Below are positions 21,159 to 39,096 of a stretch of 64,000 bases of DNA, one piece after another; position 1 is the stretch's first letter; each line of letters starts with the position of its first letter. Under the pieces are notes generated by a model. That model saw only the letters and a program-made list of their open reading frames with translations, was not told the origin of the DNA and made no database searches. The DNA is from Terriglobus tenax (lineage in GTDB: Bacteria > Acidobacteriota > Terriglobia > Terriglobales > Acidobacteriaceae). The stretch spans positions 930,001 through 994,000 of the forward strand of contig NZ_JAGSYA010000004.1 in assembly GCF_025685395.1 (NCBI RefSeq). Reading direction: 5' to 3'. The position numbers and the translations under genes were made by a program.

Positions 21159-22234
21159 CTCACCGGCGGCTTTGCCGTGGACTCGCGCAGCACAATGCTG
21201 GCCGACAGCATGGACTCGTGGGCCTGCTCTTTCCCGTCAATGTAAGCATTCAGCATCTTCAGCACGCTGCGCGCCAGGTCGGTGCGCGGCGTGGCAACTG
21301 TCGTCAGCGGCGGATGCAGGAAGTCACACAGATAGGTGTTGTCGAATCCTACGACGGAAACATCGTGTGGAATCGACAGCCCGGCTGCCTGCAAGCCGCG
21401 AAAGGCTCCCAGGGCGACCAGGTCGTTGATGGCAACCACTGCCGTGAAGCGATAGCGTTCCAGCGCTCGCTGCACCGCCCGCAACCCCGCCGCGGCCGGC
21501 TCACCCGCTTCGTCGACGATGTGAACATCCATCTCCTTGGGGTTGTACTGCAGCAGCGCTTCTTCAAAGCCGATCTGCCGTTCCATGTGCGAGAACATCG
21601 GCGGCTCAGGCGGCTCGGAGGGGCTTTGCTGCGAGTTCTTGATCAGCAGGATGCGGCGGTGCCCCAGTTCCAGCAGGTGCTGCACGGCAACAAACATGCC
21701 GTGCCGCTTGTCGACCCGGACAGTGCCGATAGACGGAGCAGAGTGGCTGTTGTCCAGATAGACCGCTGGTGTGCCGCTGTTCTTCAGCAGTGAGTAAGCT
21801 TCCGGATCGTTTTCGGAGGTCATCATGGCAATGCCGGCCACACGCAACGCCAGCATCTGCTGCACGGCAGCATACTGCTGGTCCGGGTGAAAGCTGGTAG
21901 CGGCCAGAAATGTCTCGTACCCCTGCTCACGCGCCTGGGTATCGAGCGCCTTGGCAATCTCTGCAAAGAACGGATTGAGAAGGTCAGAGACAATGATGCC
22001 GATCAGCTTGGTACGACGCCGCGCCAGGTTGCTGGCAAAGATATTCGGCGTGTACCCAAGCTGTTCAATCACATTCAGAACGCGCTGGCGCGTCTCGGGA
22101 CGAATATTGTCTTTCTCGTTGAGCACGCCGGAGACGGTGCTCAACGAGACCTGCGCCATGCGGGCGACATCCTGAATTTTGATTCGGCTGGATCGCTTCT
22201 GCTGGTAAGCGTCTGCCTTCGGTGAAACTGCCAA
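21155..22234 (-). CDS. LacI/GalR-family transcriptional regulator (pectin locus, copy 1)
   Basis: A 359-residue repressor. HTH IKIQDVARMAQVSLSTVSGVLN at about 18-39, hinge near residues 57-73 (IFASNLARRRTKLIG), then the periplasmic-binding-like core (GIIVSDLLNPFFAEI, VVGFDNTYLCDFLHPPLTTV). It lies 60 bp downstream of the GH2 gene on the same strand, so it may be the last gene of the receptor-GH2 unit. A LacI protein inside a pectin locus is likely to answer to a galacturonide or galactoside. The operator-like sites at 29.4-29.5 and 33.79 kb fit a LacI protein, but which of the two regulators here binds them is not known. Confidence 0.92.
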   Translation of the reverse strand: MAVSPKADAYQQKRSSRIKIQDVARMAQVSLSTVSGVLNEKDNIRPETRQRVLNVIEQLGYTPNIFASNLARRRTKLIGIIVSDLLNPFFAEIAKALDTQAREQGYETFLAATSFHPDQQYAAVQQMLALRVAGIAMMTSENDPEAYSLLKNSGTPAVYLDNSHSAPSIGTVRVDKRHGMFVAVQHLLELGHRRILLIKNSQQSPSEPPEPPMFSHMERQIGFEEALLQYNPKEMDVHIVDEAGEPAAAGLRAVQRALERYRFTAVVAINDLVALGAFRGLQAAGLSIPHDVSVVGFDNTYLCDFLHPPLTTVATPRTDLARSVLKMLNAYIDGKEQAHESMLSASIVLRESTAKPPVS

Positions 22235-22294: not shown

Positions 22295-25200
22295 CTACGA
22301 CTGTTGTGCTCCTCCTTTGGTTGTCAGGAACGCGAGAGCATTCGCCATGAAGCGCTGCAGCAGGACCGGATGCATGTCCACAATGCGATGCAACACAACC
22401 GGCGTGCTGCCCACCTTCGCAGCCAGCGTGCCCGCTCCGATGTTGCGATCATGATCGCGTGCATAGGCGCACGGCACCTCCACCGACGGCCCATCGACCA
22501 TCCAACCGTTCGATCCCCCGCCCTTCACCTGGTAGTGAATGCTCATGGCCTGGTCCACCGGCATGCCGTCGTACAGAGGATGCTTGCGGATGAAATACCA
22601 CGACCCCATCCACGAGGCGCGAGAGGCGCCAACCACTCCATGGAACTTGAAGGCGCCCAGTGTCTCCAACTGCTTCGCCACACCGATCGACTGCCCGTCT
22701 GTCGGCGTAATTGCCAGCAGAGGCGTGCCCGCCTTGACGGCAGCCAGCATTGCCTCCGGCAGGGTGAACTCCTTGATTGGACCGGAGCCGGGCTTGTAGG
22801 CACCTTCGGCATCCACAGCCAGATTCTTCGAGGCATCGGATGCGCCACCGGAGCCGATCAGAACGTCGTACTTACCGCCTTCCACAAACGGCTCTACCGT
22901 GATGCCGGCAATCTTCTTCAGCGTCTCTTCCACCTGGGGAGACAACTGCGCCGCGCCAACACGCAGCGGCTTCAGGCTGGCCGGCGCAAGGTCGACAACC
23001 AGCAGTGAAACCTCGTGCACAACATCCGGATGCTCGCTGCCGGAGAAGCGTGCCACCCAGGTTCCAGCCCCGGTCAGCGGAACCGTCGTAACGCTCTCCT
23101 CCAGCAGGTACGAGAGCTGGTCCCGCTGGAACTTCGGAGCATCGTACTGCGCCACCTGGGTCTTCACACCATCAGGACTGGTAAGGGTAAGCGTCAGCTT
23201 GCCAGCCACGGGTTTATCACTATCGTTCAGCAGCCACGTGTCGAAGACGGCCTTCTCGCCCGTGGCCAGCACAAGGCGCTTCTGCTTGGCCACCGGCAGC
23301 ACCGGCCTCAGAGCGTTCGAGATCGCCTTCGGGTCTGCCTTGAAGTCGCGGAAGTTGTCGACCAGGCCTGAGTGGTTCTCCATGGCCGTCGACTCCCAGC
23401 CGCTGATCGCCGCCATGTCATTCTCGTCGCAGATGCGGACGTTCTCCATGAACTGCCCCCACGACTCATACGCACGGCGGCCAATGGAGAGGAAGAGCTT
23501 CTCCGCCGTCGGGAAAGCCGCACGGAAGCCCCAGCGATCGAGGAATTTCTCATAGCTCGCAAGCTGTTCCTCATGGTCCAGCTTGTCGTAGCTCAGGCCG
23601 CCATGGCGGCGAATCTCACGCAGCACGCTCGCGTGGTTGTCGATCGACGCAGCGCCCTTCATTTCGCCCCACTCCACAATCTCAGCCTTCACGGGCGAGC
23701 GGTAATAGAAGTCGGTCTTCGAGTTGTAATACGTGTCCTGCCACACATCGGAGAAGTGGCCCGTGTGGTCAACCCACCATCCGCCGGCCCCGCCCTCTTC
23801 CGTCGCCTTCCCCTTGGACTTCAGAATCTCCGCGCTGTAGGGCTGGCTCCACGCCTGCGGTGCACGCATCACAAAGCCATCGTTGCCCACAATGGTGCGG
23901 CTCGGGTCCTCGGCCTGCATCAGGTGGAAGAGCTGTGCCAGGTCGGGGCTCTGCGGATCAAGCGTCGTCTCGTTCTGGATAATGTAGTGCACCACCGATG
24001 GGTGGCTGCGGAAGGCGCGGATCATGCCGCGAATCTTGGCCTCCATGTAGCGCCGCGCGCTCTGGTGGCCCTGCGATGCCGGAACGAAGCCCTGGCTGCC
24101 GCCGCCAGGTTCCAGGCAGCGAAGCAGTCCCATGCGATCCTGCACGTACAGCACATCTTCCTTGCCCAGGTTCCGGTGGAAGTTCAGTGCGTTCAGGTTG
24201 AACTGCTTGGCGACGCGCACCTCCTTCTCCGCGAGGTCTGGTGATGGAAACAGCCCATTCAGAGCCCAGAAGCCCCACGAGATCGAGGTATAGATGCGGA
24301 TACGCCGGCCGTTCAGGCGGATGACCGCATCCTTGCCAACGCCATCCGTCGTAATCCAGCGAAAGCCGCAATCCACGTCACGGACTGCCGCGGCCTTGCC
24401 GCCGTCAATCCACTCCGAGCGAAGCGTGTAGACATGCGGCGTATCCAGGTCCCAGATCTTCGCGTCCTTCGCCGTAAGCTCTGATTTCAGCGTTGCCGTC
24501 TTGCCAGGCTCAACGCTGGCTGGCACTTCGATCGTAGCCAGAGTCTGCTTCCCGTTTGCCGCAAGCACTGAGAAGCGTACCTTGCCCGTGATGCCCTGCC
24601 TGCCGCTGTTCTCCACCTCGGCATGCGCCACAATGCACTTTGCCTCCGGCGTATTCAAGGCCCAGCTGTCGGCAATGCGGACCGGACCATGCGCGCTGAG
24701 CACCATGCCGCGGTCAATGCCGCCGAAGCCATGGCTCTTCTGGAACTCCATACCGCCCCAGCTCAGGCGGTTGCCGTCCACCCAGTCAAGACGGCCGCCC
24801 GGATTGGTAATGCGGACAGCCAGCACATTCCTCTGCCCCGGCTGCGCTGCCTCGGTCAGGTCACACTCAAACGGCAGCTCCTCCATGATGGAGTAGCCCA
24901 CCAGCTTCTGGTTCAGGTAGACCTCGGCGCGCTGGCGAGCTCCGCGAATGTGCAGCAGGATGCGCTTACCGGCAAAGGCCTTGGGAATCGAAATCTCGCG
25001 CCACCACCAGGAGACGCCGTAGTACGCGCCATTCTTCACCTGGTCATCAGTGGTCTCAAACTTGTACTCGTCTTTGTAAGGAAAAAAGCCGTTGATGCCC
25101 CAGAAGAACTGCTCCGCCGTCGCCGGCAAGGCCACACCTAGCCCCTGCTGCGTGGAGAGCACCGCCCATCCCCCGGTTGGAGCATTCACGGGTAACGAGG

Positions 25201-25435
25201 CGAGCTTCACATCCTGGGGCAGAAAGATCGTATCGTTCTTCCACTCCGCCTTGCGATCCAGCCACAGGCGCCAGCCATCATCAGGAACATCCAGCTCCAT
25301 CTCGCTATAACGCACGCTGCGCGCACCCGTTGTCAGCAGCGGCTGTTCCTTCGGCTGGGAATACACGGCTTCCGTTTTCAGAGCTGAGGCGACGCTGGCC
25401 AATGTGCTGTTACGGAGAAACGAACGGCGATCCAT
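22295..25435 (-). CDS. GH2-family glycoside hydrolase (beta-galactosidase-like), Tat leader
   Basis: A 1046-residue exported enzyme beginning MDRRSFLRNSTLAS (twin-arginine type). Order: jelly-roll sugar-binding domain (GVSWWWREISIPKAFAGKRILLHIRG ... AEVYLNQKLVGYS), Ig-like domain, TIM barrel (FRWITTDGVGKDAVIRLNGRRI, then LNFHRNLGKEDVLYVQDRMGLL) with the probable acid/base Glu in HYIIQNETTL and a candidate nucleophile in EIVEWGE. The C-terminal ~250 residues are a separate domain with a ThuA/GATase-like look (YDVLIGSGGASD). The family cleaves beta-galactosides, glucuronides or galacturonides; in this locus side-chain galactan or unsaturated uronides are plausible targets. Confidence 0.82.
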   Translation of the reverse strand: MDRRSFLRNSTLASVASALKTEAVYSQPKEQPLLTTGARSVRYSEMELDVPDDGWRLWLDRKAEWKNDTIFLPQDVKLASLPVNAPTGGWAVLSTQQGLGVALPATAEQFFWGINGFFPYKDEYKFETTDDQVKNGAYYGVSWWWREISIPKAFAGKRILLHIRGARQRAEVYLNQKLVGYSIMEELPFECDLTEAAQPGQRNVLAVRITNPGGRLDWVDGNRLSWGGMEFQKSHGFGGIDRGMVLSAHGPVRIADSWALNTPEAKCIVAHAEVENSGRQGITGKVRFSVLAANGKQTLATIEVPASVEPGKTATLKSELTAKDAKIWDLDTPHVYTLRSEWIDGGKAAAVRDVDCGFRWITTDGVGKDAVIRLNGRRIRIYTSISWGFWALNGLFPSPDLAEKEVRVAKQFNLNALNFHRNLGKEDVLYVQDRMGLLRCLEPGGGSQGFVPASQGHQSARRYMEAKIRGMIRAFRSHPSVVHYIIQNETTLDPQSPDLAQLFHLMQAEDPSRTIVGNDGFVMRAPQAWSQPYSAEILKSKGKATEEGGAGGWWVDHTGHFSDVWQDTYYNSKTDFYYRSPVKAEIVEWGEMKGAASIDNHASVLREIRRHGGLSYDKLDHEEQLASYEKFLDRWGFRAAFPTAEKLFLSIGRRAYESWGQFMENVRICDENDMAAISGWESTAMENHSGLVDNFRDFKADPKAISNALRPVLPVAKQKRLVLATGEKAVFDTWLLNDSDKPVAGKLTLTLTSPDGVKTQVAQYDAPKFQRDQLSYLLEESVTTVPLTGAGTWVARFSGSEHPDVVHEVSLLVVDLAPASLKPLRVGAAQLSPQVEETLKKIAGITVEPFVEGGKYDVLIGSGGASDASKNLAVDAEGAYKPGSGPIKEFTLPEAMLAAVKAGTPLLAITPTDGQSIGVAKQLETLGAFKFHGVVGASRASWMGSWYFIRKHPLYDGMPVDQAMSIHYQVKGGGSNGWMVDGPSVEVPCAYARDHDRNIGAGTLAAKVGSTPVVLHRIVDMHPVLLQRFMANALAFLTTKGGAQQS

Positions 25436-25534: not shown

Positions 25535-28500
25535 TTAGAACTCGATGCGAGCAGCGAGCTGCAGCGCACGGTTGGTTGCAGAAGAACTGTCTACAACCAT
25601 CGTTCCGTAGCTGGCGGTACCGAATGTGTTCAGCACAGCGTTGGACTGGCTGTACACAAAGCGGGTGTGATTGGTCACGTTGAAGTAGTCCGCTTCGATG
25701 ACCAGCTTGTTGGTTTCAAGCGGACCGGCCTTCGGCAGATTGATGGCGCGACGCAGGCTCATATCCAGGCGGTAGTTGCCCGGCTGGAACAGACCTGAGT
25801 ACGGAGCCGTACGAGCGATCGTGCTGAAGCGGTAGTCATACTGCGCCTGGTTGCCAGCGTAAGGAACGAACGCATTCGCATCCAGGAACTGCTTGGCTCC
25901 CACTTCTGTGGCCAGATGCGGACGATTGCTGCCATTGTTCAGACGGCCATTGCCCACATAGTTCGGATTCGCCTGCGGATAGCAGACATTCTGCGACGGG
26001 TTGATGTTGCAGGAGTTCATCGTGACCGACATCGGAGCGCCTGAGAATGCATTGAAGATTCCCGAGACCTTCCATCCGCCAATCAGCTGGCGGACAAACG
26101 GATTGCTTCCGCCAAGCTCGCCCTTACCGAACGGCAGGTCATACGCGCCGGTGACAACGAACTTGTGACGTTGATCGCCGAGCGACAGGCTCTTATCCAG
26201 AGAACGGGCCGCATGGAACTTGCCATCGCTGGCATAAGCAGCCGGCAGGTCGTAGCCAACACGGAAGGTTCCGTTGTTGTCGATCGAACGTGCCCACTGG
26301 TAGTTGGTCATGAACGTAAGACCATTGGTCAGACGCTTGGTGACATAGGCCTGGAAGGCATGGAAGCGGGTGTTACCCACAAAGCCATAGGCATCACTGA
26401 TGCTGCCGTACTGCGGGAACGGCTTCAGAGCCTGGGCAATCGAGGGGTTAGCAGAACCACCGAAGCTGGCGTAAGGCAGGGAGACTCCCGCCGTTGCCAG
26501 GTTAGCCGGCGTCGCTTGTGCATTCAACAGCGAACCCAGTGCAAGGTAACGCGGGTCCACCTGGTTGGAGATGGCACCGCGAGCGTTCAGGCTGTCCGGC
26601 TGCAGGAAGTGGCCCTGCGATCCGACGTAGCTCAGCGTCATCGTCGTGCTCGGCGTCAGCTCGCGCTGAATACCGAAGTTCCAGTTGATGAACTGCGGCG
26701 CACGGCCACCGTAATTCGGATCGGCGTACGAAGGTGTCTGCGACGAGGCCGATGAAAGCGTCGTGTAGAACGTACCGATCGACGGATCAAGATTCGGCGG
26801 AGCGCTGTAGGACGGATAGGCCGTGTCCAGCTTCCAATACTGCGATCCAACCTGGCCTGCGGCAGGAGCTGCAAAGACCGTGGAGGGGCTCACGCTGTAG
26901 CCCTGCAGGCCAATGCCCTGCCGGGAGGTGGCGCTGCCGCCATTCGCGTTGCCATGCGTATAGATCACGCTGTAGCTGCCACGAACCACCGTTTTCGGAT
27001 CCAGCTGGTAGGCAAAGCCCACACGCGGGCTGAAACCCTTGAAGTAGTCGTTGACCGGGCTGTTACAGTTGCAACGTCCCGCGCCGTATCCGCCGAAGGC
27101 CACCGCTCCGCGAGCGCCAACCAGAGGATTGGTTGCATTCGGGTCAAAGTACGAAAAGCGGTTCTGTACTTCACGATAGCTGGGGAAATAGTCGAAACGC
27201 ACGCCAATATCCAGCGTCAGCTTCGGGGTGATCTTCCAGTTGTCCTGCACATAACCAGACACGGGACGGAAACGAGCGCCTGTCTCAGGCACCGACGACA
27301 ACGTAAACGTGCCGCTGTTAACCGCACCAGCCAGGAAGCTGGCATACGCCTGACCCGTTGTTCCGACCGTCGCCGTACCGGTGTAGCCGGCCGTCGAGGT
27401 CGCGTTGAAGGTCAGCTGCAGCGGATTCACACCCGTCGCATTGTTCAGGAAGTTGTACTGCATCCAGGCAATCTGACCGCCAAAGGTGAAGTTATGGTTG
27501 CCCTTGGTGTACTGCAGGTTGTCGACCAGGACAAAGCCGTTTGCCACGGGACGATTGCTTGAGTAGCCCGCCCAGCGGTTGATGTTGGTGTTACCCGAGA
27601 AGGTCACCGTCGGGAACGAGGTGGAAGCCTGTCCGCTCGGAAGACCCGAAATGCCATTTGCCGCTGCTCCCCAGGTGCTGCTGATGCTCTGGTTGAAGCC
27701 AGGACCGTCATAACGGCCAAACGCATAGTGAACCTGGTTCGTGATGCGCGACGTAATCGCATAGGTATGCTCAAAGATGAACACCTTCGTCTTCGGCGCA
27801 AACTGCTGTGACGAGATGTACGGTGCTGGCATACCGTTGGAGGTGGACGAGATGCTGACCGCGGCCGGAGCCGTGGTTGCCTGACGGCCCCACGCCAGCA
27901 CGACCGACAACGCCTGCTTGTTGTTGATCGTGTAGTCGATACGGTTGGTCGTCGTCCAGTTGTTCAGACCGGTCTTGTAGTTCACCAGGTAGTTATTGTT
28001 GACGTTGCTGTTGGTCGGAGCCGGCAGATACGACTGCAGGTTGCGCGCAACCTGCGACTGGCGCGAGACCGGGATAATGTTGTTGGCAAACACGGTGCGC
28101 TGGTAGTTATTGCCCACCAGGCGAGTCGTATCCGGATCGTAGATGCAGCCAGCGATTACAGAGGTTGATCCGGCAACGCAGCTCGCCGGATTGGTCAGCA
28201 GCTCGCCAAAGTCGCCCTGGCGCATACGTGCTGTCGGCGCCGTCATCTGCTGGAAAGGAACCTGGCGCGAGAAGCGGTAGCCCTCATAGCCGCCAAAGAC
28301 AAACAGCTTATCCTTGATAATCGGCAAGCCAAGGAACATGCCGTACTCATGCTGATGCTCGGTCGGCTTCTGCAGGCGGCCCGTCAGCGGGTTGGTCGCC
28401 TTCTGGAAGCCCCAGGTATCCAGCGCGGTGTCACGGAAGTAGTCATAGATCGATCCGTGAATGCTGTTCGTACCACGCTTTACAACGTAGTTCTGGACGC

Positions 28501-29272
28501 CCTGTCCTTCGTAGATTGACGAGTAGCCAACCGTCTGCACCTGGAACTGCTCAATGGCGTCTACCGCCATCGATGTCCATACAAAGCGGGGATCGCCTTC
28601 GCCAGCCGCCGAGGTGATCGGCACACCATTGATGTAAATCGCCGAAACAGCACCACGGCTGCCCGAACCATTCACAACACCAGCATTGGTGGTCTGGTTG
28701 CCGTTGGTCGTCTGCGAGCTTACACCCGGCAGCAACGAGGCAAAGTCGGTGGCGCGGCGCTGACCGCCGCCATCCTGAATCAGAGGCAGGGCAGCATACT
28801 GCTCCTGCTCGATCGTGACACCGAGCGTTGCGTTGGACGTTTCAAGTGTCGGAGGCGCGTCGGATACCGTTACCTGTTCCGTCGTCTCGCCCGTGGGCAA
28901 AGTTACGTCGACTGAAAAGGTCTGCAGAGCATTGACGTTGACATTCTCCTGCGTCACGGTCTTGAAGCCAGGCATGGAAACCGTGATCGTGTATTTGCCT
29001 GGGTCCAGAGAAAAGGTGTAGTCGCCAGCCCCGGAACTCTTGGCTGTGAGCTTCTTATTGGTGCCGTTGTCGGTGATCGTGACATCAGCACCCGGAACAA
29101 CCGCGCCGGTAGTGTCGACGATGCGACCGTTGATCGACCCCTTACCAGCAAGCTGAGCGCTGGCAGAAACCGACAACGCTGCAGCCAGTGCCAGCGGCGT
29201 CGCGTATCGAACGACTCCTCTGGTCAGACCAGCTGCAAGTGCCAGTCGAGAGATGGAAGAGCGAAACGTCAT
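25535..29272 (-). CDS. TonB-dependent receptor, Oar-like, with carboxypeptidase-regulatory domain
   Basis: An outer-membrane receptor of 1245 residues from the ATG at 29272 (GGAG 6 bp upstream); a longer frame to 29521 would run through the promoter and is rejected. Signal peptide (PLALAAALSVSASAQ), then a CarboxypepD_reg fold (GSINGRIVDTTGAVVPGADVTI), plug (DFASLLPGVSSQTT, AIYINGVPITSAAG) and a long barrel ending RALQLAARIEF with the terminal Phe used by the BAM machine. There is no SusD partner, as is usual in Acidobacteria. Placement in the pectin locus suggests uptake of oligogalacturonides or RG fragments. Large size, no frameshift. Confidence 0.93.
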   Translation of the reverse strand: MTFRSSISRLALAAGLTRGVVRYATPLALAAALSVSASAQLAGKGSINGRIVDTTGAVVPGADVTITDNGTNKKLTAKSSGAGDYTFSLDPGKYTITVSMPGFKTVTQENVNVNALQTFSVDVTLPTGETTEQVTVSDAPPTLETSNATLGVTIEQEQYAALPLIQDGGGQRRATDFASLLPGVSSQTTNGNQTTNAGVVNGSGSRGAVSAIYINGVPITSAAGEGDPRFVWTSMAVDAIEQFQVQTVGYSSIYEGQGVQNYVVKRGTNSIHGSIYDYFRDTALDTWGFQKATNPLTGRLQKPTEHQHEYGMFLGLPIIKDKLFVFGGYEGYRFSRQVPFQQMTAPTARMRQGDFGELLTNPASCVAGSTSVIAGCIYDPDTTRLVGNNYQRTVFANNIIPVSRQSQVARNLQSYLPAPTNSNVNNNYLVNYKTGLNNWTTTNRIDYTINNKQALSVVLAWGRQATTAPAAVSISSTSNGMPAPYISSQQFAPKTKVFIFEHTYAITSRITNQVHYAFGRYDGPGFNQSISSTWGAAANGISGLPSGQASTSFPTVTFSGNTNINRWAGYSSNRPVANGFVLVDNLQYTKGNHNFTFGGQIAWMQYNFLNNATGVNPLQLTFNATSTAGYTGTATVGTTGQAYASFLAGAVNSGTFTLSSVPETGARFRPVSGYVQDNWKITPKLTLDIGVRFDYFPSYREVQNRFSYFDPNATNPLVGARGAVAFGGYGAGRCNCNSPVNDYFKGFSPRVGFAYQLDPKTVVRGSYSVIYTHGNANGGSATSRQGIGLQGYSVSPSTVFAAPAAGQVGSQYWKLDTAYPSYSAPPNLDPSIGTFYTTLSSASSQTPSYADPNYGGRAPQFINWNFGIQRELTPSTTMTLSYVGSQGHFLQPDSLNARGAISNQVDPRYLALGSLLNAQATPANLATAGVSLPYASFGGSANPSIAQALKPFPQYGSISDAYGFVGNTRFHAFQAYVTKRLTNGLTFMTNYQWARSIDNNGTFRVGYDLPAAYASDGKFHAARSLDKSLSLGDQRHKFVVTGAYDLPFGKGELGGSNPFVRQLIGGWKVSGIFNAFSGAPMSVTMNSCNINPSQNVCYPQANPNYVGNGRLNNGSNRPHLATEVGAKQFLDANAFVPYAGNQAQYDYRFSTIARTAPYSGLFQPGNYRLDMSLRRAINLPKAGPLETNKLVIEADYFNVTNHTRFVYSQSNAVLNTFGTASYGTMVVDSSSATNRALQLAARIEF

Positions 29273-29376
29273 TGGTGACTCCTCAAAAATTAACTCGCGG
29301 ATATAAATAGACCGCAATATCACCGTGCGCATAGCTTCGCGCTGCGGCTTGGTCTCAGATTTCGAGAACGATGCGA

Positions 29377-29406
29377 ATGTTACGCTCCGGAAAACACGAC
29401 AGTCAA
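29377..29406 (-). promoter_or_regulatory. Sigma-70-like promoter of the TonB-receptor gene
   Basis: On the minus strand TTGACT (29406-29401) and TAACAT (29382-29377) are separated by 18 bp, about 100 bp upstream of the receptor ATG. Both operator-like sites lie just upstream of the -35. Confidence 0.6.
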
Positions 29407-29423
29407 ATGGAGTTTTCAAAATT

Positions 29424-29433
29424 AAAACGGTTC
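29424..29433. promoter_or_regulatory. LacI-type operator-like site C
   Basis: AAAACGGTTC, part of TTAAAACGGTTCGGATAA, shares the central CG and flanks with the sites at 29489 and 33784. It lies 17 bp upstream of the receptor promoter -35. Confidence 0.45.
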
Positions 29434-29488
29434 GGATAAGCCATCGAATGCCCTCCTTAAAACGGAATAAATATCCAAAAATCTGGAA

Positions 29489-29504
29489 ATTGAAGCGTTT
29501 CGAT
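29489..29504. promoter_or_regulatory. LacI-type operator-like site B
   Basis: The core GAAGCGTTTC is a near-palindrome around a central CG, flanked by TT and GATAA. Together with the site at 33784 it suggests a consensus TTnAAnCGnTTCnATA. Apart from the two operators, the receptor promoter and the terminator at 29597, nothing else is seen in the gap 29273-29691. Confidence 0.5.
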
Positions 29505-29591
29505 AAACGCCCGTTTCTCATGGCTCGGAATTCGCTTTTTCATCACTGAAAACCGCCTCGTTTCCTGCTGCATCCAGAACCCTTTTATCCA

Positions 29592-29630
29592 GAAAAATCC
29601 GGAGGCTGGGATCACTCCCCGCCTCCGGAT
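29592..29630 (-). terminator. Intrinsic terminator after the pectinesterase operon
   Basis: ATCCGGAGGC at 29597-29606 pairs with 29621-29630 (10 bp). Read on the minus strand the hairpin is followed by TTTTTC (29596-29591). It ends the GH28-acetylesterase-pectinesterase unit before the receptor gene. Confidence 0.85.
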
Positions 29631-29691
29631 CCGGAACCTTTCTGAATTCTTTACAGAAATAATTTCAATAGCGTAATGGTCTGACCAATAC

Positions 29692-30759
29692 CTAACGCGC
29701 CAGCTTACGGAGCCGCCCAATCGCGCCAACCGGATCCCACTTGTCCGTTCCCGCCAACAGGCCCCGGGGAGTCAGCGACTTCTCCTCTGCCCGGGTGAGA
29801 GGCGGATAGTTGACGACGCGCTGGCCACCGTTCACTCCCGGTCCGTGCGACTTGTATTCGCGGTAGGTGCTGTTCTTCAGACGGCCACCCCACTCGGACC
29901 ACCCATCGGCGGCAAGCTTCTGCTGAATGTCGGTGTCGTAGAACAGGACCGTGGAATATGTCCGCCACGGCCGCCCAAGGATGACCTTATCGCCCACGTC
30001 CTGCCCGGTGATGCGGCAGTGCAGGAAGTAGTAGCCCGAGTCCTCCTCCGGAAACTGCCGGCTCTGCGCCGTCACCATCACCGTGTCATGGTGGCGCGAG
30101 TGCAGCTCGCAGTTCTCAAAGACCGCCTTGGCGTCGCCAAAGATATAGTCCACGTGCCCCTCGATATAGCAATCGCGGAAGTACTGCCGCGAGCCCTGGC
30201 AGGCGGCTCGTCCCGGCGGCGGGGCGCTGCCGTCCTTCGGCAGGTTGTCATGGCAGGTGCGGCTGTTGGCGTAGAGCGTGTCCTGCGCGCCCAGCAGGCG
30301 CACACGGTCCAGCACCGCCTTGTCCGAGCTCATCAGCAGTGCGACGGCTTGCGAACCCTCACCCGGAAAACGCTCGTGCTCCAGCTCAAAGGTGTTCTCG
30401 ATGGTCAGGTTCTCGGCGGCAAAGCCGTCGGCGTCCACGCTTACGCTGCCGCTCTTACCGGTGCCTCCGGCAGACTTCGCCGAGTCGTTCCAACTCAGCA
30501 CCACATCCTGCGGCTGCTTGCCCGTGCCGATCAGATGGATGTTCGGTTTGCTGATGTGAATCTTCTCGCGGTACTTGCCCGGAGCGATGCGCAGGATCGC
30601 GCCTTCAGCCGGCGCGTGGTCCACGGCCTCCTGAATCGTGTGGAAGTCAGCACTTCCCTGCGGCGCCACGGTAATCGCCTTCAAAGAATCGGCGGCAACA
30701 GCGGGCAGCGTACAGACAGCAGCAGAAAGCAGCAACGTGGCAAAGCAACGTAGCGTCAC
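29692..30759 (-). CDS. Pectin methylesterase (CE8)
   Basis: A 355-residue exported right-handed beta-helix enzyme that removes methyl esters from homogalacturonan. Signal peptide MTLRCFATLLLSAAVCTLPAVAA. Catalytic features: Gln in GSQAVALLMS, GAQDTLYANSRTC (first Asp region), YIEGHVDYIFGDAKAVF (second Asp) and LGRPWRTYSTVLFYDTDI with the conserved Arg and Trp. It is the last gene of a minus-strand operon behind the acetylesterase (33 bp), with a terminator downstream. A Cys-rich insert (TCHDNLPKDGSAPPPGRAAC) sits between the two Asp strands, as in several bacterial CE8 enzymes. Confidence 0.95.
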   Translation of the reverse strand: MTLRCFATLLLSAAVCTLPAVAADSLKAITVAPQGSADFHTIQEAVDHAPAEGAILRIAPGKYREKIHISKPNIHLIGTGKQPQDVVLSWNDSAKSAGGTGKSGSVSVDADGFAAENLTIENTFELEHERFPGEGSQAVALLMSSDKAVLDRVRLLGAQDTLYANSRTCHDNLPKDGSAPPPGRAACQGSRQYFRDCYIEGHVDYIFGDAKAVFENCELHSRHHDTVMVTAQSRQFPEEDSGYYFLHCRITGQDVGDKVILGRPWRTYSTVLFYDTDIQQKLAADGWSEWGGRLKNSTYREYKSHGPGVNGGQRVVNYPPLTRAEEKSLTPRGLLAGTDKWDPVGAIGRLRKLAR

Positions 30760-30792
30760 AAAACACTCCTTCAGTTGTAATGAAACAGATCT

Positions 30793-32310
30793 CTAGTGAC
30801 CGTCCGTGGGCGCGGCCTGTTGCAGAACGGGCGTCGCTCCCTCAGGCAGCCCCTTCACATTCGGCCCAAGCTCTACCTGCGTGCGGATGACGTTGTCGGC
30901 CACCATGCGGCCAAACAGCGCCTTGCCCTTGTCATTCAGGTGAGTACGGTCGGGCTTTACTTCCGTGCCGTTCTCCGCCCTGGCGTCAGGGTGCGTGGTG
31001 GCGTTGTATGCATCCGCCTCGGCCTGTGTCTTCATAGACAGGTAGTGCTGTGACAGGCTGAACAGGTCCAGGAAGGTAACCTTCTCCTCCGCGGCAACCT
31101 TACGTACGGAGGCGGCGTAGTCCTCAAGGCCGTCCTTCACCAGCTTGCCGTCCTTATAGTTGCGCCGCGAAAGCGGGCTGACCAGGATCGGAATGCCGCC
31201 GATTGCACGCACTTCCTTAATGAAGCGGCGCAGGTTGTCGGCATACAGACCGTCGGCGTCCGCGTGGCGCTTGGGGTCGGGCTTCTGGTCATTGTGGCCA
31301 AACTGGATGAAGTAGTACTGCCCTTTCTCATCGATCGACTTCTTCCACCAGCCTTCGTCGATAAAGCTGACCGTACTGCGGCCGTTCTGCGCCAGGTCCA
31401 CACAGGTGACGTTCGGTGTCAGCGTGGCGCAGAAGCCCGGCCCCCAGCCACCTTCCAGAGCCGTGGTCGAGTCGCCGGTCAGGACGATCTTAAAGGGCTT
31501 GCCTTCGATGACATCCATCGCCAGTTTGCCCTGCGGCGGCAGCTCGGCGGCCTTCGGCAGCACATACTTCTTCAGCGCCGGAACGGCTTTGCCCAGATCG
31601 GCGGCAACCATGCGGCCAAAAATATAGCTTCCCTGCCAGTCCAGATGCGTCTTGTCCGGAACAGTGTTGCCGTCCTTGTCCTTCTTGGTAATGCCGAGCT
31701 TGTTGCCTTCCTGCTCGCCAATCTTATCCAGATAGGCAATGCTCTCAGTCTGCAGGTCAATCAGCGGCACCTTCATCTCGCTGGCCACCTTCTTCATGGT
31801 GGCGGCGTGAGCCAGCAGGTCACTATGGATCTTGCCGTCCTTCTCAAAGTAACGACGTGTCAGCGGAGTCACGAGCACCGGCTTGATGCCTTGCGCTCGT
31901 GCCTCCTCCACCATGCGGCGCAGGTTAGCTTCATACTCGGCCATGGTCACCTGGCGGGCAAGGTGCTCAGCGCTCTCCATATCGTTATGGCCGAACTGGA
32001 TGAGCATGTAGTCGGGCCTGGTGCTCAGCGCGCGGTCCCACAAACCCATCTCACGATAGGTCTTGGTGCTGGCGCCGCCTTTGGCCATGTTCAGGCAATC
32101 CACCTTCTCTGAAAGGTTGGCGCAGAAGCCGCGACCATAGCCGGCGTTGTCGGTCTGCGTCGAATCACCGATCAGGTCGATGCGCACCGTGGTTCCGGCG
32201 CGGCGCTGTGCCGGATGATCGCCAACATACGCGTCTTCCGCAACCGCACCCGCGGCAGCGGCACACAGCAACAACGCACCCACATTCTTCGCGACAAACC
32301 GCATCGTCAT
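30793..32310 (-). CDS. Tandem two-domain rhamnogalacturonan acetylesterase (SGNH, CE12-like)
   Basis: A 505-residue exported protein (signal region VGALLLCAAAAGAVA) with two complete SGNH domains. Domain 1 (about 40-250): IDLIGDSTQTDN, NMAKGGASTKT, IQFGHNDMES and DKTHLDWQG. Domain 2 (about 270-485): IVLTGDSTTALEGGWGPGF, LAQNGRSTVSF, IQFGHNDQKPDP and DRTHLNDKG. Each keeps Ser, oxyanion Gly/Asn and the D-x-x-H dyad, so both may be active. Single-domain relatives deacetylate the galacturonate of rhamnogalacturonan I. It lies between GH28 (5 bp) and the pectinesterase. The domains differ in sequence, so the duplication is not recent. Confidence 0.9.
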   Translation of the reverse strand: MTMRFVAKNVGALLLCAAAAGAVAEDAYVGDHPAQRRAGTTVRIDLIGDSTQTDNAGYGRGFCANLSEKVDCLNMAKGGASTKTYREMGLWDRALSTRPDYMLIQFGHNDMESAEHLARQVTMAEYEANLRRMVEEARAQGIKPVLVTPLTRRYFEKDGKIHSDLLAHAATMKKVASEMKVPLIDLQTESIAYLDKIGEQEGNKLGITKKDKDGNTVPDKTHLDWQGSYIFGRMVAADLGKAVPALKKYVLPKAAELPPQGKLAMDVIEGKPFKIVLTGDSTTALEGGWGPGFCATLTPNVTCVDLAQNGRSTVSFIDEGWWKKSIDEKGQYYFIQFGHNDQKPDPKRHADADGLYADNLRRFIKEVRAIGGIPILVSPLSRRNYKDGKLVKDGLEDYAASVRKVAAEEKVTFLDLFSLSQHYLSMKTQAEADAYNATTHPDARAENGTEVKPDRTHLNDKGKALFGRMVADNVIRTQVELGPNVKGLPEGATPVLQQAAPTDGH

Positions 32311-32315
32311 CTCCC

Positions 32316-33698
32316 CTAATCCTGGTACGGAACAAACTTGTTGTCGCAGCTGAAGCCCGACTTCACTGAGGGAATCGGCGTAGGTGTGCTGGTCACGCTC
32401 GTTCCGGTAAAGGTAAAGTTTGCGCCCTTCGCGCCCACAGTCACACTGGCATTACGAGCCCGTACCTGCTCGGGTTTCACACCGCGAACTTCCACGCCAT
32501 CCAGCGTCAACTCGGTCGCACGCTCAGCGTTCAGACCAGCCACCTGCACAATGCCCGGCGTCAAGCTGAGGAAGTTTTCAATGCGGATGCCCTTGTAGTC
32601 CGGCGTCAGCGGTCCCTTCAATCCAAGATCTTCAATGCCGTCGGTCGTCTGGCCGTTGTAGAAGGGGCTGATGGAGATGGGCACCTCGACATCCCGCAGG
32701 CACAGGTTGCGATAGACCACGTTGCGCACCACGCCGCCGCGCTGCACATTGCTCTTGATGCGGACGCCGCTGGTGGTGTGGTCCAGCGTCAGCGTGTCTA
32801 CGTAGATGTCACTTTCGTCGCGCGCTTCCGAGCCCATCGACATGCCATGACCGCTGTAAAAATGATTGTCCAGCACGCTCATGTGGTGAACACCAGCCTT
32901 GATGGCGATATTGTCGTCGCCGTTGTCGATCCAGCTCTTCGTCACGGTCACATTCTGCGAGCTGCCTGGGTCAATGCCATCCGTATTACGCGCATCGGTC
33001 CCACGCACGGTGGGCGTCAGCAGGTGCACGCCCCACGCGGTAAAGCCGTCGGTGTTGCTGACCGTCACATGGAAATTGGGCGAGTTGTGCAGGCGCACCT
33101 TGTACAGGATCAGGCCGTCTGCATGATTTGCGACCACGAGCCGTGGCGCGGAGTACTTCGTGTTCGTCGGCTCAGCCGCGCGCGACTGCTGCCACCAGGT
33201 ATAGCTCTTGCCAATCAGCTGGCTGCCGCCACGGCCATCAATCGCGCCTTCGCCCATAATGGCCGCGTTCTTCACATCCTTCACACTGATCAGCGGCCGG
33301 CAGGCGCTGCTTTCGGGTCCGGAGGTACCGCACCCGCCGGGCTTGGTGTCATACAACTTCGGGTCGCGTGATCCATACAGCGTGACACCCTTCTCGATCA
33401 GCAGAGTAACGCCTGCACGCATTTCCAGAGGGCCGCTCAGAAAGGCGTTGTTCCCCCCGCTTGCACGCAACGCTACAGCCTTGCCCGCGCCGCAGCTATC
33501 CAGAGCCTTCTGAATGCGTTCGGAGTCGAGCTTCTGCTCGTCCTGCTCGCGCAGGGCGTTGTTCTCCGCACGCAGCTCGGACTTCAGCACCGTGCACGCC
33601 TTTGGGATAACAGGTTCAACAACATGGCGGGTGTCCTGGGCTGCGGCGGCGAGGCTTAACAATGCGAACGGAAGGGCAAAAACGGCAGAACGAGTCAC
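32316..33698 (-). CDS. GH28 polygalacturonase (second copy)
   Basis: A 460-residue exported enzyme from a GTG at 33698 (GGAG upstream), giving signal peptide VFALPFALLSLAAAAQ; a longer frame to 33809 would place the promoter inside the gene. The beta-helix includes IMGEGAIDGRGG, NTDGIDPGSSQNVTVTKSWIDNGDDNIAIKAG (NTD and DD catalytic Asp), YSGHGMSMGSE (GHGxSxGS) and SGVRIKSNVQRGG (RIK). These are the four canonical GH28 motifs, unlike the more divergent copy at 19770. It heads the operon with the acetylesterase and pectinesterase, under the promoter/operator at 33747-33800. Confidence 0.93.
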   Translation of the reverse strand: MTRSAVFALPFALLSLAAAAQDTRHVVEPVIPKACTVLKSELRAENNALREQDEQKLDSERIQKALDSCGAGKAVALRASGGNNAFLSGPLEMRAGVTLLIEKGVTLYGSRDPKLYDTKPGGCGTSGPESSACRPLISVKDVKNAAIMGEGAIDGRGGSQLIGKSYTWWQQSRAAEPTNTKYSAPRLVVANHADGLILYKVRLHNSPNFHVTVSNTDGFTAWGVHLLTPTVRGTDARNTDGIDPGSSQNVTVTKSWIDNGDDNIAIKAGVHHMSVLDNHFYSGHGMSMGSEARDESDIYVDTLTLDHTTSGVRIKSNVQRGGVVRNVVYRNLCLRDVEVPISISPFYNGQTTDGIEDLGLKGPLTPDYKGIRIENFLSLTPGIVQVAGLNAERATELTLDGVEVRGVKPEQVRARNASVTVGAKGANFTFTGTSVTSTPTPIPSVKSGFSCDNKFVPYQD

Positions 33699-33746
33699 GG
33701 AACTCCACTTCAAAGCCAGAGGGATGCACCAGAGGTGCTCGCCTGA

Positions 33747-33776
33747 ACTATATGGAGCGGAGTTAATTCGCGTCAA
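33747..33776 (-). promoter_or_regulatory. Sigma-70-like promoter of the pectin-degradation operon
   Basis: On the minus strand TTGACG (33776-33771) and TATAGT (33752-33747) are 18 bp apart, about 50 bp before the GH28 start codon. The spacing equals that of the receptor promoter. Confidence 0.6.
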
Positions 33777-33783
33777 ATACAAA

Positions 33784-33800
33784 TCAAAACGTTTCAATAG
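33784..33800. promoter_or_regulatory. LacI-type operator-like site A
   Basis: TCAAAACGTTTCAATAG has a perfect 8-bp core palindrome AAACGTTT. It sits 7 bp upstream of the -35 of the GH28 operon promoter. A fourth similar sequence, TGAAACGCTTCGATAG at 33908-33923, is inside the carboxylesterase coding region. Confidence 0.55.
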
Positions 33801-33809
33801 CGGAAACAT

Positions 33810-35471
33810 TTATGTGCCGGGCTGGCGGTAGTGCGCCTGCGCCGCCAATCTACGCTCCTCTCCGCGCGGATCGCTGGCGACCAGAGGCTTTGTCTCCCAC
33901 ATCATGGTGAAACGCTTCGATAGGTCGTAGGAGGGCCACTGCGGGATCGCCCGATTGTTCGGATTGCCGGTTTTTGCATAGGTGATCAGCGTCTGGCTCA
34001 TGGCCTCCGCCAGAGGCTGGGCGCGGCGAATTTCGTCCTTTGTGGCGCCGATCATGCCCGGAGAGAGCGCTAAATTGTCGAAAAAGAACGGAATATCGAG
34101 CGTATGTGGCGCTTTAAACTTGCCACCCGCCACCGGCGACGGCCAGTTCATCTGGTAGACCCAGGTACGGTTGGATGCGGGACTCTGGGCGCGGCGCTCC
34201 GCCTCGATCACCTGTCCCGGCCACGAACGGAAGGCTGTCGCGGCGGCAAAAAAGACGTCCGCCGGAGAGTACAGCGGATACCAGCCGCGATATTTCGTGA
34301 CCACATCCTTCGGGTCCATGCCGCCGAGGAAGCTGCCGACGTTCTTTTGAAGCGCGGCTGGCAAGTCCTCCCAGGTGATTGAAAACAAAGCTGGCTGCCC
34401 ACCGCCGATCAGGCCGCGGGTCTCGTCATGGGTGTTGCCAAGGATCATCGGCACGTCGTTCGAGAGCGGCGGAGCGTCCGGGTCGAACGGATCGCGCGGC
34501 AGCGCTCCGCCATCCACTACCGGGAGCCACGCGCCACTGACACGGGCGGCGTCTTCCAGGGTTTCGAGCGGCAATGCGTCCAGCTTCTGCCGCAACTCCG
34601 TGCCGGAGACATCCTGCAAGCCGAGTTTTGCCAGGAACTGACGAGACCGATCGGTCGCAATTTTCTTCGGGGCCGCCGTCACCTGCTGGCCGCTCATGCT
34701 CATCACGCGATGGAAGAGACCGTGTGCGGCGGGCATGGCCATCAGGGTGGCGCACTTGGCTCCGCCGCCGGACTGTCCCCAGATAGTGACGCGATTGGGA
34801 TCGCCGCCAAACGAGGCGATGTTGTCCTTCACCCAGCGCAAGGCCAGCACCAGATCCAGCATGCCAGCGTTGCCGGAATCGGCATAGGCAGGATCGTTCG
34901 TCAGCTCCGCCAGGTAGAGATAGCCGAAGGCGTTGAGGCGATGGTTCACCGTGACCACGACGACATCGCCACGCTTCGCCAGCCGTGTGCCATCGTAGAG
35001 AGCGGCGTTGACCGTACCGCCGTTGTAGGCTCCGCCATGGATGTAGAAGAGCACCGGGCGCTTCTTATGACCAGCGCGCGAAGGCGACGGTGTCCACACA
35101 TTCAGGTGCAGGCAGTCTTCGCTGATGGGGCCTTCATCGGGCGGAAGGTGAAAGGTGTCAGGGTTCTGCTTCGGCTCTTCCCGCCGGGCGCGGCTGCTGC
35201 CGCCAAGCTGCGGAGAACGGTCTCCCCAACGGATGCAGTCGCGAATGCCTGTCCATGCGGTGGGCGGCACAGGCGGCTGGAAGCGGCGGGTGCTGGTGTC
35301 GGCTCCGTAAGGAATGCCGAGGAAGCTGGCGATGCCGTCCTTCGTTGCACCGCGAACCTCGCCCGCGGAGGTGCGGACCACGGGCCGCGTCTCCGCAAAG
35401 GCCAACAACGAACGCGACGAGAGCATGGCCGCAGCGCCAAGCCCACCTTCCAGAAATGTACGACGACGCAC
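33810..35471 (-). CDS. Type-B carboxylesterase, exported
   Basis: A 553-residue alpha/beta hydrolase starting at a GTG at 35471 with GGGAGAG upstream; the longer frame reads through galT and is not credible. An RRRTFLEGG twin-arginine leader is followed by the carboxylesterase motifs: SFLGIPYGAD, EDCLHLNVWTP, oxyanion loop FYIHGGAYNGG, nucleophile elbow TIWGQSGGGAKC, Glu in NTHDETRGL and His in APHTLDIPFFF. Located 37 bp after galT, it may be the third gene of a galK-galT-esterase unit. In this locus it could remove acetyl or feruloyl groups from pectin side chains; the substrate is inferred only. Confidence 0.88.
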   Translation of the reverse strand: MRRRTFLEGGLGAAAMLSSRSLLAFAETRPVVRTSAGEVRGATKDGIASFLGIPYGADTSTRRFQPPVPPTAWTGIRDCIRWGDRSPQLGGSSRARREEPKQNPDTFHLPPDEGPISEDCLHLNVWTPSPSRAGHKKRPVLFYIHGGAYNGGTVNAALYDGTRLAKRGDVVVVTVNHRLNAFGYLYLAELTNDPAYADSGNAGMLDLVLALRWVKDNIASFGGDPNRVTIWGQSGGGAKCATLMAMPAAHGLFHRVMSMSGQQVTAAPKKIATDRSRQFLAKLGLQDVSGTELRQKLDALPLETLEDAARVSGAWLPVVDGGALPRDPFDPDAPPLSNDVPMILGNTHDETRGLIGGGQPALFSITWEDLPAALQKNVGSFLGGMDPKDVVTKYRGWYPLYSPADVFFAAATAFRSWPGQVIEAERRAQSPASNRTWVYQMNWPSPVAGGKFKAPHTLDIPFFFDNLALSPGMIGATKDEIRRAQPLAEAMSQTLITYAKTGNPNNRAIPQWPSYDLSKRFTMMWETKPLVASDPRGEERRLAAQAHYRQPGT

Positions 35472-38013: not shown

Positions 38014-39096
38014 CTAGGAATCCGGCAGAAGCGAGGCTTCCTGGTCCAGTCCGTCGGCGAACAAGGAGAGATTGCTGCGCAGCACAAGGTGGGGCGCTAG
38101 GCGCGTGATGGGCGGTACCGGCTTCAAGCCCAGAACGTGGGCATACAGCATCTCGACTGCCATCTTTCCCTGCGTAAACGGACGCTGATGCAGCGAGCAC
38201 AGGATGCGGTCGCTCTCAATGAGGGGGACAAGTTCCGGAAACAGGTCCGTGGTCACGATCTTCAACCTGCCCAGCAGCTTTGCCTCATCCACAGCCCGGA
38301 GAACGGGAAGGCTATTCGCCGTTCCCAGGTAGAGGCCGCCCAGGGCGGGGTGCCTGCGCAGCAGCTTCCGCGCGGCTTCATATCCCTCTTCCGGATTGTC
38401 ATGCGACTCCAGCGGCGGTAGAAGGGTGAGTTGCGGTGCGTGCACGGCCAGGGACTCCGAGAAGCCACGCAGTTTTTCACCGTGATCCTGAATGCGGAGA
38501 TCTCCGGCGATCATGGCGACCTTCGCCGGCTGCGGCAAAACGCGGCCCAGCAGATCGGCCGCGATGCGGCCGCTGACCGTTGCATCGGACGAGACGGAGG
38601 CAATGCGGTCCAGCAAGGGAGCATCGCTGCCGATGAACAACAGCGGCGGCGCGGAGGAGTCACGGAAGAGCGTTGAGAGACCGGAAGGATTACCCGGTGC
38701 GAGCACTACACCATCAAACTGATGCCAGCGGGCACGTTCCATGCATTCCACGTCACCATCGCCCAAACGAGGAAAGCGAAAGAACTTCAGTTCGAGCGGT
38801 GTGCCTGTCGTCAGCCGTTCGGCGGCAGCCTGCATGCCTGCCTGCATGCTGTCGAAGTAGACGGCGATCCGTTCGGGAAGAAATATGCCGAAGCGGAGTG
38901 TTCGTGAGAGCTTGAGGTTGCGCGCGGCGAAGTTGGGCTTGTAGTTCAGCTTCTTCGCCATGCGCAGAACGCTGTCGCGCGTCTGTGGACTGATGCCTGG
39001 ACGGCCATGCAGGGCACGGTCTACGGTGCCGATGGAGACCCCGAGGGCTTCAGCAATTTCGCGAATTCCGTTTGGCTTGTCTGCGCTTCCGGACAC
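38014..39096 (-). CDS. LacI-family transcriptional regulator (copy 2)
   Basis: A 360-residue regulator with HTH GIREIAEALGVSIGTVDRALHG at about 10-31 and hinge NFAARNLKLSRTLRFGI. The effector domain is of the divergent kind that carries FGIFLPERIAVYFDSMQAGMQAA (as in monosaccharide-responsive regulators). The GTVDRALHGR recognition helix differs from the STVSGVLN helix of copy 1, so the two should read different operators. It lies 24 bp downstream of the aminotransferase gene on the same strand and upstream of galK. Candidate targets are galK and the aminotransferase unit. Confidence 0.92.
   Translation of the reverse strand: MSGSADKPNGIREIAEALGVSIGTVDRALHGRPGISPQTRDSVLRMAKKLNYKPNFAARNLKLSRTLRFGIFLPERIAVYFDSMQAGMQAAAERLTTGTPLELKFFRFPRLGDGDVECMERARWHQFDGVVLAPGNPSGLSTLFRDSSAPPLLFIGSDAPLLDRIASVSSDATVSGRIAADLLGRVLPQPAKVAMIAGDLRIQDHGEKLRGFSESLAVHAPQLTLLPPLESHDNPEEGYEAARKLLRRHPALGGLYLGTANSLPVLRAVDEAKLLGRLKIVTTDLFPELVPLIESDRILCSLHQRPFTQGKMAVEMLYAHVLGLKPVPPITRLAPHLVLRSNLSLFADGLDQEASLLPDS

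What the first reader, a model, noticed from the sequence alone, without database searches (positions are those of the whole stretch)
29377..33800. Shared LacI-type operators upstream of two look-alike promoters: a candidate pectin regulon
Two promoters with the same 18-bp spacing (receptor: TTGACT/TAACAT; GH28 operon: TTGACG/TATAGT) each have operator-like near-palindromes with a central CG (AAAACGTTTC, GAAGCGTTTC, AAAACGGTTC) immediately upstream of the -35. Sites downstream of or on the promoter would be usual for repression. The upstream location leaves open activation or looping. Two LacI genes lie in the same locus.
Basis: partly seen in the sequence, partly recalled or inferred. Interest (0 to 1): 0.65.

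Follow-up and report, generated by a model that had tools for sequence, protein, structure and literature searches.

The report
Conserved LacI switch for pectin genes
A soil bacterium carries a small, conserved genetic switch in which one sugar-sensing regulator very probably controls both its pectin-cutting enzymes and the matching outer-membrane receptor, from DNA sites placed just upstream of the promoters instead of on top of them.

Summary
In detail: a conserved local regulon of Terriglobus (Acidobacteriota). The three named sites exist; a fourth lies at 33907-33920 inside the upstream esterase gene. As mere sequence they are not above chance in the window; conservation makes them credible. 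In 10 of 12 GH28 upstream regions an operator is centred 49.5-50.5 bp before the predicted start, with an 18-bp promoter spacer. The misses are G153, which lacks the regulator, and G140, where GH28 is internal to an operon. The likely regulator is LacI1 (21155-22234), last gene behind the receptor; LacI2 is not needed (G152 has the sites but no LacI2 relative). G153 keeps the GH28 promoter hexamers but not the operator, and its receptor instead carries a different palindrome just after the start, beside another LacI gene. In a small sample from the genus, four other LacI-type palindromes with a recognisable promoter lie just past the start, so the upstream placement looks unusual. I think LacI1 most likely a sugar-inducible repressor acting from upstream by contacting or crowding RNA polymerase (cf. 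GalR); activation (cf. CcpA) is not excluded. No binding or expression data exist.

The parts
33784..33797 (.). GH28 proximal operator (TCAAAACGTTTCAA on +), centre 50.5 bp before the predicted start
   Evidence: same place to within 1 bp in 10 of 12 GH28 upstream regions (11 genomes); misses G153 (no LacI1) and G140 (GH28 internal to an operon, no such promoter). Aligned for 9 genomes.
33907..33920 (.). GH28 distal operator (GTGAAACGCTTCGA on +), inside the carboxylesterase coding sequence, centre 173.5 bp before the predicted start
   Evidence: a counterpart 122-128 bp above the proximal site in 9 of 10 operator-bearing regions at up to 1 mismatch, the tenth (G155) at 2; perfect core at the same distance in G152, whose upstream DNA shows no other similarity.
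33747..33776 (-). GH28 promoter TTGACG-N18-TATAGT
   Evidence: TTGAC and TATAGT invariant in the nine aligned genomes, G153 included.
29422..29435 (.). Receptor proximal operator (TTAAAACGGTTCGG on +), centre 58.5 bp before the predicted start
   Evidence: a site at -57.5 to -60.5 in 5 of 8 receptor promoters of this locus, at -80.5 in 2, none nearer than -128.5 in 1 (G095).
29490..29503 (.). Receptor distal operator (TTGAAGCGTTTCGA on +), centre 126.5 bp before the predicted start
   Evidence: 8 of 8 receptor upstream regions have at least two sites; each has one between -125.5 and -141.5.
29377..29406 (-). Receptor promoter TTGACT-N18-TAACAT
21155..22234 (-). LacI1, the probable cognate regulator, last gene behind the receptor (P0001)
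   Evidence: Pfam LacI + Peripla_BP_3; orthologs at 76-92% identity in 9 other genomes of the genus and in G140 of another genus.
22295..25435 (-). GH2 family glycoside hydrolase between receptor and LacI1
   Evidence: full match in G128, only a remnant in G148; another gene there in G095 and G152.
25535..29272 (-). TonB-dependent receptor (CarboxypepD_reg + OMP_b-brl_4)
29692..30759 (-). Pectinesterase
   Evidence: PF01095, E 2.4e-58.
30793..32310 (-). Two-domain GDSL esterase, possibly a pectin acetylesterase
   Evidence: PaeY model 72.1 bits against a cut-off of 1000.
32316..33698 (-). GH28 hydrolase (polygalacturonase family), first gene of the controlled operon
   Evidence: PF00295, E 1.2e-48; best NCBIfam model PglA, below its cut-off.
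38014..39096 (-). LacI2, next to galK/galT; probably not the regulator of these sites
   Evidence: close ortholog (83%) only in G148, G128, G155 and G157 of 19 genus genomes; no relative at E<=1e-60 in G152, which has the sites.

Best explanation
LacI1 (21155-22234) binds a near-palindrome of consensus GAAnCGnTTC (best form TCGAAACGTTTCGA) upstream of two operons, GH28-GDSL esterase-pectinesterase and receptor-GH2-LacI1, and controls both, its own gene included. Shown by comparison: the sites, the promoters, their geometry, and joint absence of regulator and GH28 operator in one genome. Inferred: binding by LacI1, a pectin-derived sugar as the signal, co-transcription of LacI1, and the sign. 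Most likely it is a sugar-inducible repressor: without the sugar a dimer sits at about -50 (GH28) or -58 (receptor), where it contacts the alpha subunit C-terminal domain of RNA polymerase or denies it its DNA, a second dimer at the upstream site adds to this, and the sugar releases both.
For: Operator at -49.5/-50.5 in 10 of 12 GH28 upstream regions, and at -49.5 of a different GH28 gene (31% identity) in another genus, G140. A composite pattern (site, 9-12 bp, TTGAC, 17-19 bp, TAnnnT) modelled on these promoters has 12 hits in 19 genus genomes, 10 of them the GH28 promoter, and 0 for the reversed pattern. LacI1 stands behind the targets in the window and 6 further genomes. In 3 of 3 fetched loci of more distant relatives (46-49% identity: G098, G160, G161) a perfect TGAA(A/G)CGTTTCA palindrome lies 108.5-172.5 bp before the regulator gene itself. 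G153, one contig and 99% complete, has GH28 and the receptor but no LacI1 (best LacI 34%) and no site with up to 1 mismatch in 260 and 500 bp upstream, while its GH28 hexamers equal the window's, as expected if LacI1 was not needed for activity. In G140 one site of its (28% identical) receptor lies 39.5 bp past the start, a repressor position. In G153 the orthologous receptor has another palindrome 12.5 bp past the start and another LacI gene in the operon. In the own genome a second receptor (41% identical) has the same core between its -35 and -10 (its regulator is unknown). GalR at -60.5 represses gal P1 by contact (PMC4693257, passages). Repression of a receptor locus by a LacI-family protein is shown for SuxR (PMC1790865, passages).
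Against: No binding or expression data. Four other LacI-type palindromes of the genus with a recognised promoter lie 5.5-15.5 bp past the start, so a plain repressor here might be expected there too. In Bacillus, cre sites upstream of the -35 were held to mean activation, with the lev operon as a stated exception (PMC3463425, passages). G155 and G157 keep the GH28 operator although no LacI1 was found; both are fragmented assemblies whose contigs end within this locus, so this may be a gap. G150, G151 and G161 have LacI1 at 76-82% identity without GH28 or a close receptor ortholog; near LacI1 G150 has only a pectinesterase (67%) and one weak intergenic site just before LacI1, G151 two one-mismatch sites just before LacI1, G161 no intergenic site. 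G095's receptor promoter has no site nearer than -128.5.
Confidence: 0.55

Rival explanations
1. LacI1 is an activator: a dimer at about -50/-58, with its ligand bound, recruits RNA polymerase through the alpha C-terminal domain, as described for CcpA at ackA or GalR at gal P2.
For: Position fixed to 1 bp at GH28 over diverged spacer DNA and reused at another GH28 gene in G140; contrast with four downstream palindromes elsewhere in the genus; nearest solved relatives are CcpA; published rule that cre sites upstream of the -35 activate (PMC3463425, passages).
Against: The GH28 promoter of G153 keeps its hexamers without regulator or site; G140 has a receptor site past the start; receptor sites vary in distance (-57.5 to -80.5, none near in G095). 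A local sugar regulator that activates would need ligand-promoted binding (my reasoning).
Confidence: 0.3
2. The paired sites serve DNA looping, as GalR does with HU, and the distal sites are essential.
For: At least two sites in 8 of 8 receptor and 9 of 10 operator-bearing GH28 regions at up to 1 mismatch; distal GH28 site at the same distance in DNA of G152 that is otherwise dissimilar (chance of a perfect core in a 3-bp target about 4e-5); in the esterase the operator's arginine is the only one of 7 invariant arginines with an invariant codon.
Against: Spacings of 58, 65, 68-69, 122-123, 127-128 and 147 bp do not share a helical phase; no tetramerisation helix (LacI1 ends 3 residues after the part aligned to LacI 332 of 360); the operator's serine and phenylalanine codons do vary; the distal site of the G095 group has a mismatch and that of G155 two.
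Confidence: 0.3
3. LacI2 (38014-39096) or another LacI protein binds the sites.
For: LacI2 lies in the same gene cluster, upstream of galK, galT and the esterase; it is present in G155 and G157, where LacI1 was not found.
Against: G152 has the sites and no LacI2 relative at E<=1e-60; G095, G031 and G154 have only 51% relatives elsewhere; LacI2's recognition region differs (by eye).
Confidence: 0.04
4. Chance palindromes with no function.
For: Not enriched in the window or, at 2 mismatches, much in the own genome.
Against: Conservation in nine genomes, eight of them aligned against diverged surroundings; 12 composite hits against 0 control.
Confidence: 0.02

Closest known systems
SuxR / sux locus of Xanthomonas campestris
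   Same: LacI/GalR-family protein that represses a locus with a TonB-dependent receptor and its enzyme, relieved by sugar (PMC1790865, passages)
   Different: Sucrose, not pectin; operator placement and orthology not compared here
GalR at gal OE (Escherichia coli)
   Same: LacI-family dimer just upstream of the promoter (-60.5), with a second operator; contact repression of P1 and contact activation of P2 (PMC4693257, passages)
   Different: GalR's second site is past the start; here both sites are upstream, except at the G140 receptor
CcpA (Bacillus subtilis)
   Same: Nearest solved relatives by sequence (1zvv, E 1.9e-52); similar operator; sites upstream of the -35 known and held to activate, with exceptions (PMC3463425, passages)
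   Different: 173.7 bits against a cut-off of 442.35 for the NCBIfam ccpA model; local regulon; no evidence sought or seen for an HPr co-factor
LacI-family local regulons of RegPrecise (ExuR, KdgR, UxaR, UxuR for uronates)
   Same: Even palindrome with central CG, local sugar regulon (PMC4052901, passages and section 9)
   Different: The words 'Acidobacteri', 'pectin' and 'TonB' do not occur in that paper's main text (supplement not read); it puts under 1% of sites in coding regions

Membership tests
LacI-family transcription factors | LacI-type helix-turn-helix plus periplasmic-binding-type sensor domain | tested here: met
   PF00356 64.3 bits, PF13377 104.9 bits, both over cut-off
LacI-family transcription factors | Even palindromic operator with central CG near the regulator's targets | tested here: met
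LacI-family transcription factors | The protein binds the operator | not testable with these tools
   Only co-occurrence:
LacI-family local regulon | Regulator co-inherited with its targets; sites absent where the regulator is absent | tested here: inconclusive
   Fits in G153; G155 and G157 keep GH28 sites without a LacI1 found, in broken assemblies; G150, G151, G161 have LacI1 without these targets
LacI-family local regulon | Autoregulation | tested here: inconclusive
   LacI1 is last behind the receptor and GH2 with gaps of 99 and 60 bp (coordinates); co-transcription not shown; distant relatives have a palindrome before the regulator gene
CcpA | Equivalog score over the curated cut-off | tested here: not met
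   TIGR01481 173.7 against 442.35 bits
LacI-type tetrameric looping repressor | C-terminal tetramerisation helix (its place in LacI recalled) | tested here: not met
   query 18-356 of 359 aligns to LacI 4-332 of 360
GalR-type contact repressor | Repression from a site just upstream of the -35 through RNA polymerase contact | not testable with these tools
   Position similar (-58.5 and -60.5 at receptors); mechanism untested

The most novel reading that the evidence does not exclude
LacI1 belongs to a group of LacI-family local regulators that work from a fixed position about 50 bp upstream of the start, by direct RNA polymerase contact (a dedicated catabolic activator or contact repressor), with a companion operator carried inside the neighbouring gene; in a sister species the receptor was rewired to an ordinary downstream-site LacI repressor.
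Probability: 0.3. Interest if true: 0.55.

Novelty: new member of a known kind. Interest (0 to 1): 0.4.

Why it matters
My searches of the paper library found no paper on LacI or regulon footprinting in Acidobacteria (titles and starts of abstracts), although these are common soil bacteria. This gives a concrete, testable regulator-operator pair for pectin use, with natural variants (G153 without regulator and operator, G140 with a site past the start) that let the question of what a LacI-type protein does from upstream of the -35 be asked on natural promoters.

Tried and rejected
LacI2 as regulator: rejected on distribution. A wider regulon in the own genome: of the 57 match rows, 6 lie in the locus; 45 distinct further places were read, 34 in reading frames and 11 intergenic, all 11 with two mismatches; one place (window 3882-3897) was not read. 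One of the 11 sits between the -35 and -10 of a second receptor (C4:2928064, 41% identical to this one); whether LacI1 acts there is open, so a strictly local regulon is not proved. The same 16-mer at 1 mismatch in 12 genomes gave 93 match rows against 44 for the reversed control (my sums), also above control in G156, which lacks LacI1, so other regulators share the core; 15 of these places were read and gave no clear target in G150, G151 or G161. A family-wide upstream architecture: 26 hits outside the genus against 18 reversed hits in 398 genomes (my counts), not clearly general. Looping by common helical phase: not seen. Timing of the loss in G153: trees do not settle it (GH28 fork open; receptor puts G153 with the window clade at 80/57). 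Structure prediction was not run.

The helical-face test was made after seeing the data and used 7 (or 4) proximal positions; it left out the G095 receptor (no proximal site), the G140 receptor, the second proximal GH28 site of G152 (-72.5) and L167 as a clade member.

Known slips: one search prints site centres 1 bp off for its 16-mer; its distances are not used. In some searches the predicted start counts as 0, so values past it are one less than the usual +n. The palindrome scan ran on one strand. One search has no shuffled control.
Full report
WHAT IS THERE. The window lies in a 4.36-Mb genome, G000. The genus is Terriglobus: contigs of the same-genus genomes G148 and G151 have the lengths of T. 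albidus DSM 26559 and T. roseus DSM 18391 contigs. On the - strand, in order of transcription, run LacI2, galK, galT, a carboxylesterase, GH28, a GDSL esterase, a pectinesterase, a TonB-dependent receptor, a GH2 hydrolase and LacI1. The GH28 and receptor promoters are TTGACG-N18-TATAGT and TTGACT-N18-TAACAT. The three named sites are present; a fourth is at 33907-33920 inside the esterase gene.

CHANCE. Over the window the loose motif is not enriched (23 against 21.9; 13 against 13.2). In the own genome a stricter 16-mer gives 57 rows at up to two mismatches against 46 for the reversed control; its two exact hits are both here, but it was built from them. So the sites alone would prove little.

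CONSERVATION. LacI1 orthologs (76-92%) occur in 10 of 19 genus genomes, the window's included, and in G140 of another genus; G160, G098 and a second gene in G161 match at 46-49%. In six further genomes (G148, G128, G095, G031, G154, G152) LacI1 stands behind the same GH28-GDSL-pectinesterase-receptor order. I read 12 GH28 upstream regions from 11 genomes: 10 have a site centred 49.5 or 50.5 bp before the predicted start, each with an 18-bp spacer and TATAGT. The misses are G153 and G140; in G140 GH28 is inside an operon without such a promoter. The DNA between site and -35 differs between clades while the distance does not. A composite pattern modelled on this has 12 hits in 19 genus genomes, 10 at GH28, none for the reversed control; the other two are one promoter shared by G155 and G157. 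In G140 a different GH28 gene, after LacI1, has the site at -49.5 again.

The 8 receptor promoters read have two or three sites each; the nearest is at -57.5 to -60.5 in five, -80.5 in two and -128.5 in G095. Most proximal sites fall on one helical face, but that test was made after seeing the data, on few points, with rows left out.

DISTAL SITES. Each of the 10 operator-bearing GH28 regions has a second site 122-128 bp further up, in 9 at up to one mismatch and in G155 at two. In the window clade it is inside the esterase gene; in G095 (and, by likeness, G031 and G154) inside an unrelated gene with one mismatch; in G152 in DNA without other similarity to the window. In the esterase, 34 of 130 invariant residues have an invariant codon; of 7 invariant arginines only the operator's has one, while the operator's serine and phenylalanine codons vary: suggestive only.

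WHICH REGULATOR. LacI1, by position and distribution. LacI2's close ortholog is limited to G148, G128, G155 and G157; G152 has the sites without any LacI2 relative at E<=1e-60. In 3 of 3 fetched loci of 46-49% relatives a perfect palindrome of the same core lies before the regulator gene itself. G153, a single contig, has GH28 at 80% and the receptor at 73% but no LacI1; its GH28 promoter keeps TTGACG-N18-TATAGT and lacks the site. Its receptor stands in another operon with a second GH28, a second pectinesterase and another LacI gene, and has two GGCAACG(A/T)TGCC palindromes at -202.5 and +12.5, the only two within one mismatch found on the strand scanned in those 20 kb. Against: G155 and G157 have the operator but no LacI1 was found; their contigs end within this locus. 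G150, G151 and G161 have LacI1 without these targets; G151 has two one-mismatch sites just before LacI1, G150 one, G161 none.

SIGN AND MECHANISM. That local LacI-family regulators are mostly sugar-released repressors is my general knowledge; the abstract of PMC4052901 says most sense sugars and nearly 90% are local. For repression: unchanged hexamers in G153 without regulator; a site past the start at the G140 receptor; the palindrome just past the start on the same receptor in G153; the same core between -35 and -10 of a second receptor in the own genome, regulator unknown; GalR contact repression from -60.5. For activation: fixed spacing; nearest solved relatives CcpA; the cre rule, which has exceptions; and the contrast that four other LacI-type palindromes with a recognised promoter, found in 20 stretches around other LacI genes, lie at +5.5 to +15.5. 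Those four were what remained of 14 intergenic palindromes listed; the other ten had no promoter fitting my pattern. I weigh repression at about 0.55-0.6 and activation at about 0.3. Looping may add to either; the spacings give no common phase and LacI1 has no tetramerisation helix. The later finding leans slightly to repression; I left the odds as they were.

KNOWN OR NEW. It is a new local regulon of a known kind. Library searches for LacI with TonB-dependent or with polysaccharide in Acidobacteria returned 3 papers each, none on this subject by title and start of abstract; regulon footprinting there returned none; Terriglobus with pectin gave 36 papers, 15 listed, none on this regulation by title; LacI family with pectin regulons gave 5, none on Acidobacteria by title.

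LITERATURE SEEN. PMC4052901: abstract and outline, sections 6 and 9, passages. PMC3463425, PMC4693257 and PMC1790865: passages only. All others: search listing.

Noticed in passing
L164 12156-12430 (G153) and L164 5086-6081: The receptor ortholog in G153 stands under another LacI-type system: two GGCAACG(A/T)TGCC palindromes at -202.5 and +12.5 of its promoter and a different LacI gene in the same operon with other GH28 and pectinesterase genes. A natural regulator swap.
   Followed up: partly
L275 2060-2085 (G000 C4:2928064): A second receptor of the own genome (41% identical) has the core TGAAACGTTTCGA between its predicted -35 and -10 (TTGACAATGAAACGTTTCGACCTCTAGGGT); regulator unknown.
   Followed up: partly
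window 29345-29370 (- strand) and receptor leaders of L071, L072, L167, L073, L074, L158, L159: The receptor mRNA leader begins with a short inverted repeat (TCTCG...CGAGA and variants; GTCC...GGAC in G152) with what look like paired changes: a possible 5'-terminal stem-loop. Folding of the whole leader keeps it in some species only.
   Followed up: partly
window 33810-39096: The LacI2-galK-galT-esterase block upstream of GH28 was found in the window, G148, G128 (LacI2), G155 and G157; G095 and G152 have other genes there.
   Followed up: partly
window 22295-25435; L071 4067-4764; L073 14660-16260; L159 15190-16840: Between receptor and LacI1 the gene differs by species: GH2 in the window and G128, only a remnant match in G148, an alpha/beta hydrolase-type gene in G152 and, by likeness, G095.
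   Followed up: partly
L174 (G155 C60:2188) and L179 (G157 C192:5127): Another promoter shared by two genomes has a LacI-type core at the same distance upstream of the -35 (AAACGTTTACTTCAACGTTGACAATCGC).
   Followed up: no
L217 3503 and 3683, L219 7469, L224 9724: Other LacI-type palindromes in the genus lie 5.5-15.5 bp past the predicted start, the usual repressor place.
   Followed up: partly
G152 C1:945982, 2750263, 3053782: G152 has further near-perfect TTGAAACGTTTCAA-type palindromes elsewhere; possibly more targets or another LacI regulon.
   Followed up: no
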